DNA of 42,734 nt, taken from contig CANDMI010000029.1 of NCBI GenBank assembly GCA_947385775.1, positions 1-42,734 of the forward strand. Direction: 5' to 3'. Every line of letters starts with the position of its first letter. The stretch's first letter is position 1. The stretch is from an uncultured Eubacterium sp. (GTDB lineage: Bacteria; Bacillota; Clostridia; Lachnospirales; Lachnospiraceae). The notes under the pieces are model-generated. The model saw nothing but the letters and a program-made list of their open reading frames with translations, did not search any database and had not been told where the DNA came from. The position numbers were made by a program, and so were the translations under genes. This document shows, in pieces, positions 2,045 through 36,975 of the stretch.

Positions 2045-3601
2045 ATGGCAAATAAATCTATAAAACGACAATTTGTCTTTCCGATAAAAGCCATGGCCGC
2101 GACGACTGCGTTTGTAACTGTCGCGTTTGTGGGCGGCGTAAGATGCGACGCGGCGCAGGCGAAGCTGTTTTTTTCGGATACGCAAAGCCAAGCTTTCGAA
2201 TCCCGGACTTTTGGCTGGCAGGAAATAGACGGGCAGACTTATTATTTTCAGCCGGGAACAGGCCAAAAGATTTTTGGACGGCAGGAAATCGATGGAAAAA
2301 CCTATTATTTTTCGCCGGATACCGGGGCGATGGCTCTGGGGTGGCAGGAAATAAACGGGCAGACCTATCATTTTGATCTGGAAACCGGGGAAATGGCGTT
2401 TGACTGGCAAAAGATTGATGGGGGAACCTATTATTTTGAGCCAAATACCGGACGGCTTTTGACCGGCTGGCAGGAGATAGAAGGGAAGATCTATTATTTT
2501 TCGCCAAGAACCTGGGAATTGGCGACCGGCTGGCAGGAAATCGATGGCAAAACTTACTATTTTGATCTGAAGACCGGGACGATGGCGCTTGGACAGAAAA
2601 AAATTGACGGGAATACGTATTATTTTGAACGAGAAAGCGGCGCATTGGAACTGGGCTGGCAAAAAATTGGTGGAAAAACCTATTATTTTGAGCTGCAAAC
2701 AGGGAAAATGTCATTTGGATTTAAGAAAATTAAAAACAGTAAATATTATTTTTCGCCAAAGACCGGAGTCATGCTAACCGGCTGGCAGGATACGCCAAAG
2801 GGACGGCGTTATTTTTCCAAAGAAAATGGCGAAATGGCAACTGGCTGGCAGGCGCTAAACGGCAAAAAATATTATTTTTCCAAAGACAGCGGCAAGCTTG
2901 CGACCGGGGCAAAAAAAATTAACGGCAGATATTATATCTTTAACAGTAAAGGTCAGCTGGCGAGGTCTGGCGGAGTCAGCCTGACGGCGGTCGGTGGGGG
3001 CTATTATTGCGCGGATAAAAATGGGATCGCGCTTTCTGGCTGGCGGGTCATTGGAAACAGGCTTTATTACGCTTCCGGCACAGGAAAGGTAAAGACCAAT
3101 GCGACTTATAACGGGGTTACCTTTGGCAGCAAGGGGGCGGCTGTTGATAACTTAAATACAAAATTAAAGATCAAAACGATGCAGATTTTATCATCGATCA
3201 CGAACCGCAATATGACGCAAAGCCAAAAGCTTTCCGCATGCTGGTCTTATGTTGTGGGCGGCGGCTTTCGTTACGCGGCAAAATATCCGAATCTGGGCGT
3301 TTCCGGCTGGCAGAGACAGACCGCCTATGATATGCTGACGACGCATACTGGAAATTGCTACAGCTATGCCTGCGCGTTTGCGGCGCTTGCAAAAGAGATT
3401 GGCTATCAGCCGTATGTGATCTGCGGCCGGGTGCATGGATCCAGGGACAGGGCGGCGGACGGGCTTACCCGCCATGCATGGGTTCGGATCAACGGGCTGT
3501 ATTATGACCCGGAAGCGCACTACGCCGGATGGAGGCGTGGGATTTACCAAAACAGCGGCTACCCGGTTTCGCATACGGTGCAGTCCGTCACCGCATACTA
3601 A
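2045..3601 (+). CDS. Cell-wall-binding repeat protein with C-terminal transglutaminase-like domain
   Basis: The 518-residue secreted protein starts with a signal peptide (about residues 1-37, a Lys/Arg-rich start and a hydrophobic core). About a dozen tandem repeats of roughly 21-23 residues follow (about 55-355), of the form GWQEIDGKTYYF...TGxMAxG. These are choline-binding/glucan-binding type CW repeats that dock to cell-wall polymers. The C-terminal domain has a transglutaminase-like triad: Cys438 (TGNCYSYA), His477 (LTRHAWVRI) and Asp488 (LYYDPEAHY). One repeat has Trp in place of the usual Gly/Ala (TWELATG), showing ordinary drift. The ATG at 2045 is preceded by AGAAAGGA. The gene sits between the MBOAT and DHHW genes, so a wall-anchored enzyme acting near the acylated polymer is a reasonable inference. 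It could be a protease, amidase or crosslinker. Confidence 0.88.
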   Translation: MANKSIKRQFVFPIKAMAATTAFVTVAFVGGVRCDAAQAKLFFSDTQSQAFESRTFGWQEIDGQTYYFQPGTGQKIFGRQEIDGKTYYFSPDTGAMALGWQEINGQTYHFDLETGEMAFDWQKIDGGTYYFEPNTGRLLTGWQEIEGKIYYFSPRTWELATGWQEIDGKTYYFDLKTGTMALGQKKIDGNTYYFERESGALELGWQKIGGKTYYFELQTGKMSFGFKKIKNSKYYFSPKTGVMLTGWQDTPKGRRYFSKENGEMATGWQALNGKKYYFSKDSGKLATGAKKINGRYYIFNSKGQLARSGGVSLTAVGGGYYCADKNGIALSGWRVIGNRLYYASGTGKVKTNATYNGVTFGSKGAAVDNLNTKLKIKTMQILSSITNRNMTQSQKLSACWSYVVGGGFRYAAKYPNLGVSGWQRQTAYDMLTTHTGNCYSYACAFAALAKEIGYQPYVICGRVHGSRDRAADGLTRHAWVRINGLYYDPEAHYAGWRRGIYQNSGYPVSHTVQSVTAY

Positions 3602-9340: not shown

Positions 9341-10255
9341 ATGACGTTTTTTACTGTATTTTTTCAGATGCTTGCCCTGCTTTTGATCATTGGCGCAGGG
9401 TATTTTGCCGCAAAAAAGGGGATGTATGACGCGCATACGAATAACCGGATGTCGGATATGATCGTAAACATCTTTAATCCGCTGCTCGTATTGGCAAGCG
9501 CGGCAAATTCCGTAGGGCAGATCTCGTTGGAAGCCATGAAGCTGGCGGGGCTTGTGGCGGTTGGGATGTTTGCGGCGTTTATTTTAGCGGGAATGGCTCT
9601 GTCGCCGTTTTTGGAAAAGGATATGCAGCAGCGCAAGATTTTCCAGCTGATGTTTGTGTTTTCTAATGTTGGGTTTATCGGGATTCCGGTCATTTCCAGT
9701 ATTTTTGGAACGCAGTATGTCGTTTACGTATCGGAATTTATGCTTGTCTATACGCTAGTATTTTATACGTATGGGATCGCGTTGATGGAAGGGCGGTTTT
9801 CGGTGGCTTCCCTGCGGGCGGCGATTAATCCAGGGACGGTATGCGGGCTGCTTGCGCTGGCGGTCATTATTTTTGAGGTGCGGCTGCCGGATTTTTTAAA
9901 TACGGCGGTGTCATATTTAGGCAATGTGACCTCTCCAATGGCATTGATGGCGGTGGGGTTTGCGCTTGCTGACTCGGATCTGAAAAAAATTTTTGGACAG
10001 CCAAGGCTTTATGTGTTTTCCGTTTTAAAGCTGCTTGCGCTGCCGGTCGCCCTGCTTCCGTTGTTAAGGCTTGTGCTTGGAGATACGGAGCTTTTAGGCG
10101 TTTGCATGGTGATGTTTGGGATGCCGGTTGGAAATATGCCGTTGATCTTGGGGAACCAGCGGGGAATGGACGTTTCGGCATGCAGCGCGGCGATCATTTT
10201 GTCAACGGCGCTTTGCGTTGTGACGGTGCCTGTTTTGGTCATGGTTTCCGGTTAA
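9341..10255 (+). CDS. AEC family (auxin efflux carrier-like) transporter
   Basis: This 304-residue membrane protein has about ten hydrophobic segments. It shows the family's N-terminal FFQMLALLLIIGAGYFAAKKG and the characteristic NxxxPLLVLASAAN and FSNVGFIGIPV motifs of the first half. The C-terminal GMPVGNMPLILGNQRGMD matches the second-half motif. Bacterial members export or import organic acids such as malate or malonate; the substrate here is unknown. The frame extends 25 codons upstream, but AGGAGAAAG sits just before ATG 9341, and the promoter at 9266-9294 overlaps the longer version, so ATG 9341 is chosen. Confidence 0.9.
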   Translation: MTFFTVFFQMLALLLIIGAGYFAAKKGMYDAHTNNRMSDMIVNIFNPLLVLASAANSVGQISLEAMKLAGLVAVGMFAAFILAGMALSPFLEKDMQQRKIFQLMFVFSNVGFIGIPVISSIFGTQYVVYVSEFMLVYTLVFYTYGIALMEGRFSVASLRAAINPGTVCGLLALAVIIFEVRLPDFLNTAVSYLGNVTSPMALMAVGFALADSDLKKIFGQPRLYVFSVLKLLALPVALLPLLRLVLGDTELLGVCMVMFGMPVGNMPLILGNQRGMDVSACSAAIILSTALCVVTVPVLVMVSG

Positions 10256-10270
10256 GGAAAAGTTTTTTAT

Positions 10271-10350
10271 GCGCAGGCCCGCATATGGAAATTTGCTGCT
10301 GATGCAGCATGCGGGCAGCGCGGCGAGTAGGGTAAGTTTTCCCCTACTCG
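10271..10350 (+). repeat. Two-hairpin intergenic element, copy A
   Basis: Hairpin 1 pairs GCCCGCAT (10277-10284) with ATGCGGGC (10309-10316). Inside is an asymmetric bulge containing GAAATTT and an inner stem GCTGC/GCAGC around a TGAT loop. GCGC on both sides can extend the outer stem. Hairpin 2 pairs CGAGTAGGG (10324-10332) with CCCTACTCG (10342-10350). ATTTATAAAA and then the ribosome site of selD follow. A second copy is at 36885-36964 with the same bulge, order and second-hairpin sequence but different outer-stem bases that still pair. It is therefore either a structured RNA or a small dispersed repeat. Confidence 0.75.
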
Positions 10351-10374
10351 ATTTATAAAAGGGAGGGATTGTAA

Positions 10375-34633: not shown

Positions 34634-36643
34634 ATGGAAAAGGGAAAAAGTTTGAAAAAAGCCTGGAAGTATGGATTTTTGTCCCTCCTTATTGCGGCGC
34701 CGATCATGCTGGCGCATCCAGATATGGCGTTTGCGGCGGATGGGGATACGCAGGAGGAAGAGGAAAATAAGCCGGTTTCGATCCCGACAGAGCCATACAC
34801 GCCGGCGGGAAGCAGGCTGACGTATACATTTACCGGCGATAACACATACGGATATGTGGCGAATGTGGCAAGCGTCCTTCCAAGTGAGATTACAGAAAAC
34901 AGCAATACATTAACCATCCCTGCGGAAATAGAATATCAGCCGACGCAGGAGAATGAAAAAGACGCATCAGGCGATGCTGACGGCACAGTTAAGGTAAGGG
35001 TAGCGGGCATTTTAAAGGATGTGCTAAAAGGAAATACGTCTCTTGTAAAGCTGGTCTTGCCGGATACGGTGACGTACATTGGCCAGGAAGCGTTTTGCGA
35101 CTGCGTGAATTTAAAAGAGATCAAAACGTATGCGACGTCCTTTGAGTCAAGCCCACAGACCGGCTATCTGGCGGCGGCTGAAATTGAATACCGCGCTTTT
35201 TACGGCTGCACTTCCCTGACAGGGCTTACGTTAGGAGAGATCGTAGATCCAGACACAAAGGCGTTAAAGGGCGTAAAAAGGGTGCAAAAGGAAGCGTTTA
35301 TGAACTGCACTTCTTTAAACAGCATAGAGATCGGGCCGACTGTGGAATGGCTGGAAGGCGGAGCGTTCGCAAACGCCCGCGCGTTAAACGGGCTTGCCAA
35401 CGACGTGAAGATACGCGACAATCAGTTATTTTTTATGCAGGATGGGATTTTATATTACAGGGAAAGCGAGCGCAGCAATGTGCTGCTGCTTTGCCCGGCG
35501 GCGACGGAGTCCGGGGATTTAAAGAGCTTTCCTGCGAATCTGACGCAGATTAAAAACGCGGCGTTTTATGGCTGCGAGGGCTTAACGTCGATTGAAATAC
35601 CAAATACCGTGCAGGTGTTGGGCGACCAGGCGTTTTATGGATGTACGCATCTTGGAAATGTGCGGATACCGGATTCGGTCACAAAAATCGGGACGGAAAT
35701 TTTTAAAAACTGTGGCTCTGCCGTTACGATCATCTGCGAAAGCGGGAGCGAGGCGGAGCGTTACGCAAACAGCAATAACATAAATAAAAGTGTTCGCTGC
35801 GAGGTGACATTTTTAAATACGTACAATGGCGATACGCAAAAGATCGAGATCATGAGCGGGCAGACTTTGGACGCGCCAACAGGCTGGGGCAGGGTTGGCT
35901 TTACCCTTCGCTGGTCGGATGGGTTTACGCCAAATACGACGGTCATCAACGAAAGCAGGACGATCCGCACAGTGTTTGTGCCGCTATATACCGTAACCTT
36001 CCGTGACAGCTATACGGGATATGAGTCTGTCGTGACGGATGTGGAAGAAGGCACGGAAGCCGCGCCGCCGGACTGGACAAGGAAAGGATACCGCCTGACC
36101 TGGTCTACCGAGGCGTTTCGCAGGGTAAACGCCAACATGGTCGTCAACGCGGTCTGGCTGATCTCTTTGACGGACGATGTAACGCCAGACGAGGAGCAGC
36201 AGTATCAAAAGGGAGATTTTGTAACGATCAATAACGTGGTGTTTAAAATCGTAGATTATGACGCAAGGAAGGTGCGCGCCATGGGGCTGGAGGATGAGTC
36301 TGTCAGCAAGGTGACGATACCGACCAATGTCATATTTGGCGGGCGCACTTATCGAGTGACATCCATTGGGGCGAATGCTTTTCGGGAAAACACTTCGATA
36401 AAAAAGCTGTCCATGGGAAGTAATGTGACTACGATCAAAAGCCGCGCGTTTTACCGATGTTCAAACCTGAAAAAGATTGTGATCTATTCCAAATCCCTTA
36501 GCTCCTTTGGATATTATTCTTTCAAAAAAACGAACGCGAAGGCAAAGGTATACGTTCCAACGAAAGCTTTGGCGAAAACCTATCGGGAAGAAATGCTGGA
36601 CGCGGGGCTAAGCACAAAAGCGACGGTTAAGAAAAAAAGCTAA
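34634..36643 (+). CDS. BspA-type leucine-rich repeat surface protein (second of pair)
   Basis: The 669-residue secreted protein has a signal peptide (about 1-36, ending AFAA), an acidic segment, and LRR_5 repeats (LVLPDTVTYIGQEAFCDCVNLKEI, IEIPNTVQVLGDQAFYGCTHLGNV). Two beta-repeat-like segments follow (VTFLNTYNGDTQKIEI and VTFRDSYTGYESVV, each with a GF/YxLxW motif), as does a last LRR unit (ITSIGANAFRENTSIKKL). It shares this order with the preceding protein, so the two are probably tandem duplicates that diverged. ATG 34634 follows GGAGGATGG and the gene is 18 bases from its neighbour, so both come from the promoter at 32259. Confidence 0.9.
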   Translation: MEKGKSLKKAWKYGFLSLLIAAPIMLAHPDMAFAADGDTQEEEENKPVSIPTEPYTPAGSRLTYTFTGDNTYGYVANVASVLPSEITENSNTLTIPAEIEYQPTQENEKDASGDADGTVKVRVAGILKDVLKGNTSLVKLVLPDTVTYIGQEAFCDCVNLKEIKTYATSFESSPQTGYLAAAEIEYRAFYGCTSLTGLTLGEIVDPDTKALKGVKRVQKEAFMNCTSLNSIEIGPTVEWLEGGAFANARALNGLANDVKIRDNQLFFMQDGILYYRESERSNVLLLCPAATESGDLKSFPANLTQIKNAAFYGCEGLTSIEIPNTVQVLGDQAFYGCTHLGNVRIPDSVTKIGTEIFKNCGSAVTIICESGSEAERYANSNNINKSVRCEVTFLNTYNGDTQKIEIMSGQTLDAPTGWGRVGFTLRWSDGFTPNTTVINESRTIRTVFVPLYTVTFRDSYTGYESVVTDVEEGTEAAPPDWTRKGYRLTWSTEAFRRVNANMVVNAVWLISLTDDVTPDEEQQYQKGDFVTINNVVFKIVDYDARKVRAMGLEDESVSKVTIPTNVIFGGRTYRVTSIGANAFRENTSIKKLSMGSNVTTIKSRAFYRCSNLKKIVIYSKSLSSFGYYSFKKTNAKAKVYVPTKALAKTYREEMLDAGLSTKATVKKKS

Positions 36644-36837: not shown

Positions 36838-36872
36838 ACAGCCAGTAAGGTGGGATAGACCTTACTGGCTGT
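36838..36872. terminator. Strong bidirectional terminator
   Basis: ACAGCCAGTAAGGT (36838-36851) pairs perfectly with ACCTTACTGGCTGT (36859-36872) around a 7-base loop. T-rich sequence follows in both directions. It ends the BspA operon and may also end the minus-strand CheC transcript. Confidence 0.9.
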
Positions 36873-36884
36873 TGTTTATGCACA

Positions 36885-36964
36885 CGGGCGCCCAAGTGAA
36901 ATTTGTCAGCGGAAGCTGACGGGCGCCCGGCGCGCGAGTAGGGAAGATGAATCTTCCCTGCTCG
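36885..36964 (+). repeat. Two-hairpin intergenic element, copy B
   Basis: Hairpin 1 pairs CGGGCGCCC (36885-36893) with GGGCGCCCG (36921-36929). It has the same GAAATTT bulge on the left side as copy A and an inner stem GTCAGC/GCTGAC with a GGAA loop. Hairpin 2 is CGAGTAGGGAAGA (36935-36947) against TCTTCCCTGCTCG (36952-36964), followed by ATT as in copy A. The copy sits between convergent transcripts, unlike copy A. Confidence 0.75.
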
Positions 36965-36975
36965 ATTGCATGCGT

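What the first reader, a model, noticed from the sequence alone, without database searches (positions are those of the whole stretch)
10271..10350. Covarying two-hairpin element, copy A (selD upstream)
Copies at 10271 and 36885 share architecture: a first hairpin with a GAAATTT-containing bulge and a tetraloop-like inner stem, then a CGAGTAGGG hairpin ending CTCGATT. Stem bases of the first hairpin differ (GCCCGCAT/ATGCGGGC against CGGGCGCCC/GGGCGCCCG) yet all pairs are kept, and the loop (TGAT/GGAA) varies. This covariation with a conserved bulge indicates selection on structure. Copy A is in the leader of the selenium operon and may be transcribed with it. It could be a new ncRNA class or a dispersed palindromic element.
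Basis: seen in the sequence. Interest (0 to 1): 0.72.

Follow-up and report, generated by a model that had tools for sequence, protein, structure and literature searches.

The report
Two-hairpin repeat inserted after transcription terminators
The two matching hairpins are copies of a small, probably mobile DNA repeat found in many bacteria of one gut and rumen family, usually sitting just behind the stop signal of a gene, and its tail matches the end of a known type of mobile intron.

Summary
Both hairpin pairs (10266-10353, 36875-36967) belong to a repeat with 58 model matches at E<=0.001 in the window's genome, the 8 training copies included, and matches in 73 of 397 genomes of its family, its own included. 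The first stem (P1) changes sequence but keeps pairing: 97.1% of cells in 42 selected copies, 15 of 26 pairs changed on both sides. No Rfam family reaches its cut-off in the window. 101 of 114 copies lie directly 3' of a terminator-like hairpin, against 10-15% of controls. Apart from ABC-type ATPases, no gene family recurs in more than 5 loci, so the selenium operon looks incidental. G-U pairs are rare in P1 (14 of 862; 152 of 1145 in neighbouring terminators), favouring DNA-level function. The 3' end, CCTACTCGAT(T), equals that of several group II introns of this family, some seen behind terminators. I read it as a non-autonomous miniature element using, or descended from, such introns. No mobilising enzyme was found; neither reverse transcriptase nor Y1 transposase tracks it.

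The parts
10245..10265 (+). weak terminator-like hairpin (TTTCC/GGAAA) and start of the T-run preceding copy A
   Evidence: sequence; scores only 5.0 in the terminator test, below the cut-off of 6
10266..10270 (+). TTTAT, left flank or target of copy A
   Evidence: 40 of 58 own-genome matches begin TTTAT (the model had been trained with it)
10271..10321 (+). P1 of copy A: GCGC, bulged A, 8-bp stem, bulge ATGGAAATTT, 5-bp stem, loop TGAT, return arms, GCGC
   Evidence: R2 model match 71 bits at 10266-10323
10324..10353 (+). P2 hairpin of copy A, CGAGTAGGG..CCCTACTCG, and 3' end ATT
   Evidence: 3' end equals that of several group II introns
36838..36874 (+). host intrinsic terminator (ACAGCCAGTAAGG/CCTTACTGGCTGT and T-rich tail) in front of copy B
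   Evidence: sequence
36875..36879 (+). TTTAT, left flank or target of copy B
36880..36933 (+). P1 of copy B: GCAC, bulged A, 9-bp stem, bulge AAGTGAAATTT, 6-bp stem, loop GGAA, return arms, GCGC
   Evidence: R2 model match 54.9 bits at 36875-36935
36935..36967 (+). P2 hairpin of copy B, CGAGTAGGG..CCCTGCTCG, and 3' end ATT

Best explanation
It is a miniature, non-autonomous mobile element of about 88 bp that inserts in one orientation into the T-tract just 3' of intrinsic terminators. Shown: many copies, a conserved two-hairpin structure, terminator adjacency, tandem arrays of unlike units, and sites occupied in one species but not in relatives. Inferred: P2 and the 3' end descend from, or mimic, domain VI and the 3' end of terminator-targeting group II introns, as a SINE shares its tail with a LINE, and the intron's reverse transcriptase and ribozyme insert the element in trans. 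P2 followed by ATT resembles a terminator, so new copies can land behind old ones and build arrays. P1 is a structure kept for recognition, probably as single-stranded DNA.
For: Copies; near-identical copies at different sites within G016, G333 and G340 (two pairs in the G016 list are one place seen at overlapping contig ends). Structure. Target: 101 of 114 copies have a terminator hairpin (score >=6) against 10.1% of 2000 other TTTAT sites, 14.9% of 503 TTTTTAT sites and 12.6% of 1140 shuffles; in the own genome 43 of the 52 matches that were not classed as following P2 or an intron. Site without the element: the rpmA-obgE terminator in G012. Intron link: of 9 intron ends marked by Rfam RF00029, 4 finish exactly in CCTACTCGAT and 5 do not (one of these in CTACTCGAC); of 8 distinct introns with domain RF02001, 5 have that end in the fetched DNA, 2 run off their contig, 1 (L393) lacks it. 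Six introns have a visible hairpin before their 5' end, by eye. An element directly follows an intron 3' end in L408, and at G000 C76 and C79 an intron-like 3' end recognised by motif alone. Passages of PMC4424553 and PMC8919778 state that class C introns insert at terminators.
Against: RVT_1 is present in 15 of 23 element-rich genomes (in the own genome only as a broken remnant) and in 11 of 16 genomes without a match. Of 7 introns found with the CCTACTCGAT end, 3 (L384, L388, L389) lie in genomes without an element match. Only 4 of those 7 have a 5' flank that shows a hairpin; the other three flanks were not seen. G-U scarcity in P1 argues against recognition as RNA. The branch-point A is paired in P2. 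Domain V is absent. The first base is usually A, not the intron's G. A related family has the same kind of P1 but a P2 unlike domain VI. No base-exact empty site or target duplication was obtained; the rpmA-obgE site has about 20 extra bases on the right.
Confidence: 0.38

Rival explanations
1. A REP-like or MITE-like element moved as single-stranded DNA by a Y1 (HUH) transposase of the IS200/IS605 type: P1 and P2 are the left and right hairpins and TTTAT is the target.
For: Two subterminal hairpins, a conserved bulge, G-U scarcity, TTTAT at the left edge in 40 of 58 own-genome matches. Y1_Tnp is present in 11 of 22 element-rich genomes. A TTTAT target for one IS605-type element is recalled, from no call.
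Against: No R1 or R2 match in the 30 Y1 loci examined, flanks of up to 1.5 kb. 11 of 22 element-rich genomes have no Y1 match, and the own-genome match is a remnant with stops. Genomes without the element were not tested for Y1. It explains neither the terminator preference nor the intron-like 3' end.
Confidence: 0.27
2. A host-beneficial DNA site kept behind terminators, such as a gyrase or nucleoid-protein site or a back-up terminator, whose spread is secondary.
For: Regular placement 3' of genes. P2-only copies follow genes directly, for example one that I take for rpmF on C103.
Against: Patchy distribution (73 of 397 genomes), tandem arrays of unlike units and absence at orthologous sites in relatives look like mobility rather than a conserved service.
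Confidence: 0.17
3. A transcribed structured RNA (new ncRNA or cis-regulator), with copy A acting in the selD leader.
For: Strong covariation. Copy A ends about 20 nt before selD behind a weak terminator, so read-through could include it.
Against: Placement behind terminators, next gene in either orientation, no specific recurring gene, G-U pairs scarce, no Rfam match.
Confidence: 0.1

Closest known systems
Group II introns that insert after terminators (class C)
   Same: Target (3' of intrinsic terminators, same orientation) and 3' terminal CCTACTCGAT(T); a 5' helix of the type TGCGC..GCGC
   Different: About 88 nt, no domain V, no protein; branch A paired; 5' end usually ATGCRC instead of GTGCG
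Group III introns of Euglena plastids
   Same: 90-120 nt remnants of group II introns that sometimes hold only DI and DVI motifs, thought to be served in trans (PMC4424553, PMC5572947, passages)
   Different: Plastid, inside genes and spliced; here intergenic in bacteria, splicing untested, branch A paired
REP/BIME elements with RAYT transposases
   Same: Short palindromic intergenic repeats with stem subfamilies that keep pairing (PMC3733652, passages)
   Different: No unpaired GTAG tag, two unlike hairpins, no linked Y1 gene seen, terminator target; that paper's text holds no occurrence of 'Firmicutes' or 'Clostridi'
bcr1 and other repeats of the Bacillus cereus group
   Same: Dispersed repeats (100-400 bp) for which a TTTAT motif and mobility are described (PMC6542083, passages)
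   Different: No sequence comparison was made; other hosts
BOX, RUP and SPRITE repeats of Streptococcus pneumoniae
   Same: Intergenic repeats that cluster; SPRITE is terminator-like (PMC10969869, passages)
   Different: No shared architecture was tested here

Membership tests
Group II intron, class C | Insertion just 3' of an intrinsic terminator | tested here: met
   101 of 114 copies against 10-15% of controls
Group II intron, class C | 3' end ..AY with domain VI sequence | tested here: met
   CCTACTCGAT(T), the exact end of 4 of 9 introns marked by RF00029
Group II intron, class C | Bulged branch-point A in domain VI | tested here: not met
   The A pairs with T in all 42 aligned copies (columns fixed by the search pattern); in own-genome copies it is mostly T-A or C-G, by eye
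Group II intron, class C | Domain V / ribozyme core | tested here: not met
   No group II intron model matches in the window
Group II intron, class C | 5' end GUGYG | tested here: not met
   Usually ATGCRC, rarely GTGCRC
Group II intron, class C | Intron-encoded reverse transcriptase | tested here: not met
   The element is too short to hold one; RVT_1 does not track it
REP (RAYT-associated) | RAYT or Y1 gene flanked by the repeat | tested here: not met
   No element match in 30 Y1 loci
REP (RAYT-associated) | Unpaired GTAG or CGTC tag beside the hairpin | tested here: not met
   The GTAG in P2 is paired
MITE (DNA transposon derived) | Terminal inverted repeats and target duplication | tested here: inconclusive
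   None seen by eye; no base-exact empty site
Group III intron | Removed from a transcript by splicing | not testable with these tools
   Needs RNA data
Known Rfam RNA family | Score above the curated threshold | tested here: not met
   No match in the window; a permissive search near copy A gave one weak lncRNA match next to the element
bcr1 | Sequence similarity to the bcr1 consensus | not tested
   Consensus not at hand
Integron attC | Conserved recombination boxes | not tested
   No attC model was run

The most novel reading that the evidence does not exclude
A bacterial counterpart of the SINE-LINE pair: an 88-nt non-autonomous retroelement, reduced from or parasitic on terminator-targeting group II introns. 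It keeps only intron-like ends, much as group III introns do in Euglena plastids, and is moved in trans into terminator sites across a bacterial family.
Probability: 0.27. Interest if true: 0.87.

Novelty: new variant of a known kind. Interest (0 to 1): 0.66.

Why it matters
If moved in trans by group II introns, it would be a very small bacterial retroelement parasite and would make trans-action of group II introns in bacteria testable; PMC4424553 (2015, passage) says that no trans-splicing introns had been reported in bacteria. Even as a plain repeat, it is a frequent component of gut and rumen Lachnospiraceae genomes that places hairpins between genes, lies at some contig ends and could be mistaken for a regulatory RNA. 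My searches of the open-access library listed no paper that describes it; most subscription papers are not held. One catalogue of 3161 candidate structured RNAs of human microbiomes (PMC8040213, passages) could contain it: its supplements could not be looked up here.

Tried and rejected
Riboswitch or selD leader RNA: not favoured, because the element recurs beside unrelated genes. Of 756 ORFs around 117 copies, the only wide cluster (23 ORFs in 20 loci) is ABC-type ATPases, 22 of 23 with a Walker or ABC signature motif; no other cluster exceeds 5 loci. Rfam family: none. RAYT/Y1 linkage: none seen. Reverse transcriptase co-occurrence: none. Phage or plasmid carriage: no blastn match in 50,697 phage and 72,556 plasmid records for the window copy or the second family; one viral contig matches the pattern, none matches the second family's pattern. 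The exact-pattern hit in G034 (L010) lies in what looks like a coding frame and lacks the plan. MAFFT and R1-fitted alignments misplaced A-type stems, so pair counts use A6.

Limits of the counts: A6 holds 42 of 54 copies with regular P1 geometry, out of 112 parsed of 115 unique sequences (3 failed), so rows were selected for parsable stems. The parser maximises pairing; its own control (re-paired arms) gave 61.6% against 97.2%. At most 10 candidates per genome were scored, with stricter filters. One search includes the own genome, and how many of its 391 genomes are of the same family is not shown. For P1b the parser reports 82 G-U of 677 pairs, of which 57 are one added outermost T-G pair; the alignment gives 1 one-sided change in 210 cells. 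ORF calling is crude. The seven introns with the CCTACTCGAT end were found by searching that motif in the reverse transcriptase loci, so the independent counts are those by RF00029 and RF02001.

Full report
What is there. Copy A (10266-10353) and copy B (36875-36967) share one plan: TTTAT, GCRC, a bulged A, a P1 stem of 8-9 bp, a one-sided bulge of 10-11 nt with a GAA core, a second stem of 5-6 bp with a tetraloop, the returning arms, GCGC, then P2 (CGAGTAGGG..CCCTRCTCG) and ATT. Both fold better than all 200 shuffles. Nothing in Rfam reaches its cut-off in the window.

How many. A covariance model of eight copies (R1) finds 58 matches at E<=0.001 in the own genome, those eight included; some are partial, and a few hold P2 alone. 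In 397 genomes of the same family 73, the own one included, have a match, in 65 of 334 genera. A P1-only model (R2) matches 5 of 391 genomes of the class, the own one included, all five in the window's family. Their titles name Lachnospiraceae bacteria, Butyrivibrio, Hungatella, Dorea, Faecalicatena, Lachnotalea, Roseburia, Sporofaciens, Eubacterium, [Clostridium] symbiosum, a 'Clostridium sp.', a 'Clostridia bacterium' and unnamed bacteria. In the own genus the exact pattern was found in none of the 12 other genomes, but R1 and BLAST find copies in G012, G001 and G009.

Structure under selection. In alignment A6 (42 copies, MAFFT, not fitted to structure, rows selected as told under Tried and rejected) 97.1% of cells pair, 15 of 26 pairs change on both sides, and none of 500 shuffles reaches any of the five measures; sliding the partner by one base drops pairing to 28%. 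The third pair of the GCRC/GCGC helix is broken in 15 of 42. RNAalifold finds nearly the same structure on its own. P2 does not vary in A6 because the pattern fixed it. In own-genome copies found without that pattern P2 changes in step in some, for example CGAGCAGG/CCTGCTCG and CGGGCAGG/CCTGCCCG, and on one side only in others, copy B among them. In P1, G-U makes up 14 of 862 stem pairs, against 152 of 1145 in 98 host terminators beside the same copies, found by a similar rule that counts G-U as a full pair. A stem kept as RNA would be expected to pass through G-U often (general knowledge), so I infer that the constrained form is DNA.

Where it sits. 101 of 114 copies with usable flanks (117 matches, 3 dropped for short or unknown flanks) have a hairpin of score 6 or more ending in the T-tract that runs into the element; controls reach 10.1% (2000 other TTTAT sites), 14.9% (503 TTTTTAT sites) and 12.6% (1140 shuffles). 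In the own genome 6 of 58 matches were classed as following P2 or an intron-like end; of the other 52, 43 reach the same score; copy A scores only 5.0, so its terminator is weak. The upstream ORF points towards the element in 75 of 93 loci, and then the downstream ORF points either way, 50 against 25. Units also stand in tandem, often with unlike P1 stems, so some arrays grew by adding different copies rather than by plain duplication.

Mobility. The rpmA-obgE terminator carries the element in G000 but not in G012; G000 has about 20 further bases to the right of the element that G012 lacks. A copy behind a matching terminator flank, upstream of a gene that I take for metK in G000 (name recalled), appears in both G000 and G012. 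Around two G016 copies, 16 flanks from relatives were read by eye: none has a full copy, and two (L253, L254) have a short degenerate resemblance behind a terminator. In G016, G333 and G340 P1 is almost identical between distant sites, which points to recent spread within each genome. I obtained no base-exact empty site.

The intron link. Rfam marks group II introns in reverse transcriptase loci of these genomes. Of nine intron ends marked by RF00029, four finish exactly in CCTACTCGAT (L384, L389, L390, L438), four in quite other letters (L384 first, L385, L386, L409) and one in CTACTCGAC (L392). Of eight distinct introns with domain RF02001, five carry that end (L388, L389, L390, L391, L408), two run off their contig (L383, L397) and one lacks it (L393). 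Seven introns in all were found with the end. Four of these seven, and two others (L393, L397), have a visible hairpin before their 5' end, by eye. CCTACTCGAT followed by T is the element's own 3' end. Domain VI of these introns reads GAG.AGG..CCTACTC with the A unpaired; P2 reads GAG T AGG..CCTACTC, the same arm with a T opposite the A. Their 5' helix (GTGCGCC..GGCGCAC) resembles the GCRC/GCGC helix that encloses P1, but this second likeness is weak. Class C introns are described as inserting at terminators (PMC4424553 and PMC8919778, passages); I did not test the protein class of these introns. Group III introns of Euglena plastids are 90-120 nt remnants that sometimes hold only DI and DVI motifs (passages) and are the nearest structural parallel.

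What speaks against it. RVT_1 occurs in 15 of 23 element-rich genomes and 11 of 16 genomes without matches, and three of the seven introns with the matching end lie in genomes without an element match (L384, L388, L389). The own genome's only RVT_1 match is a broken remnant. A second family carries the same kind of P1 with its own 5' hairpin and a P2 unlike domain VI, near-identical in six genera; related forms occur in three more genomes. P1 may therefore be the older module and P2 an exchangeable tail. A Y1-type single-strand mechanism remains possible, although no Y1 locus examined holds the element.

Verdict. The finding is real and the structural reading right; the thing is a terminator-seeking dispersed repeat, most likely mobile, and not specific to selenium genes. 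SelD, a cysteine desulfurase family protein and YedF do follow copy A, and copy A may be carried in their leader by read-through, but nothing shows a regulatory role.

Noticed in passing
L442, L445-L448, L450, L451 (G138, G371, G023, G340, G414, G174): A second, larger family: 5' hairpin AACTCAGTCGGAG..CTCCGACTGAGTT, linker, ATGCGCA, P1, then hairpin CAAGACTCGCGAGCGAGTCTTG; near-identical at unrelated sites in six genera.
   Followed up: partly
L414-L416, L418-L420, L422, L423 (G799, G638, G356): Further P1-bearing elements with own 5' hairpins and terminator-like P2.
   Followed up: no
G000 C103:6009-6102 (L077) and similar on C120, C79, C30, C86, C7: P2 hairpin alone behind coding-looking sequence, without a full P1 or a preceding terminator; the C103 gene looks like rpmF.
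   Followed up: no
L403, L398: Rfam RT-5 RNA (RF03026) next to reverse transcriptase matches in G016 and G021.
   Followed up: no
window 2216-2907: Series of 63-nt in-frame repeats inside the ORF at 2045-3601, which look like 21-residue cell-wall-binding repeats (not tested).
   Followed up: no
window 34634-36640: Large ORF with weak matches to a leucine-rich-repeat adhesin and a sub-threshold match to the PARCEL repeat model (27.4 against 30 bits).
   Followed up: no
L408 / G350 C65: A group II intron whose 5' part appears to be joined to another group II intron's sequence, followed directly by a P1 element.
   Followed up: partly
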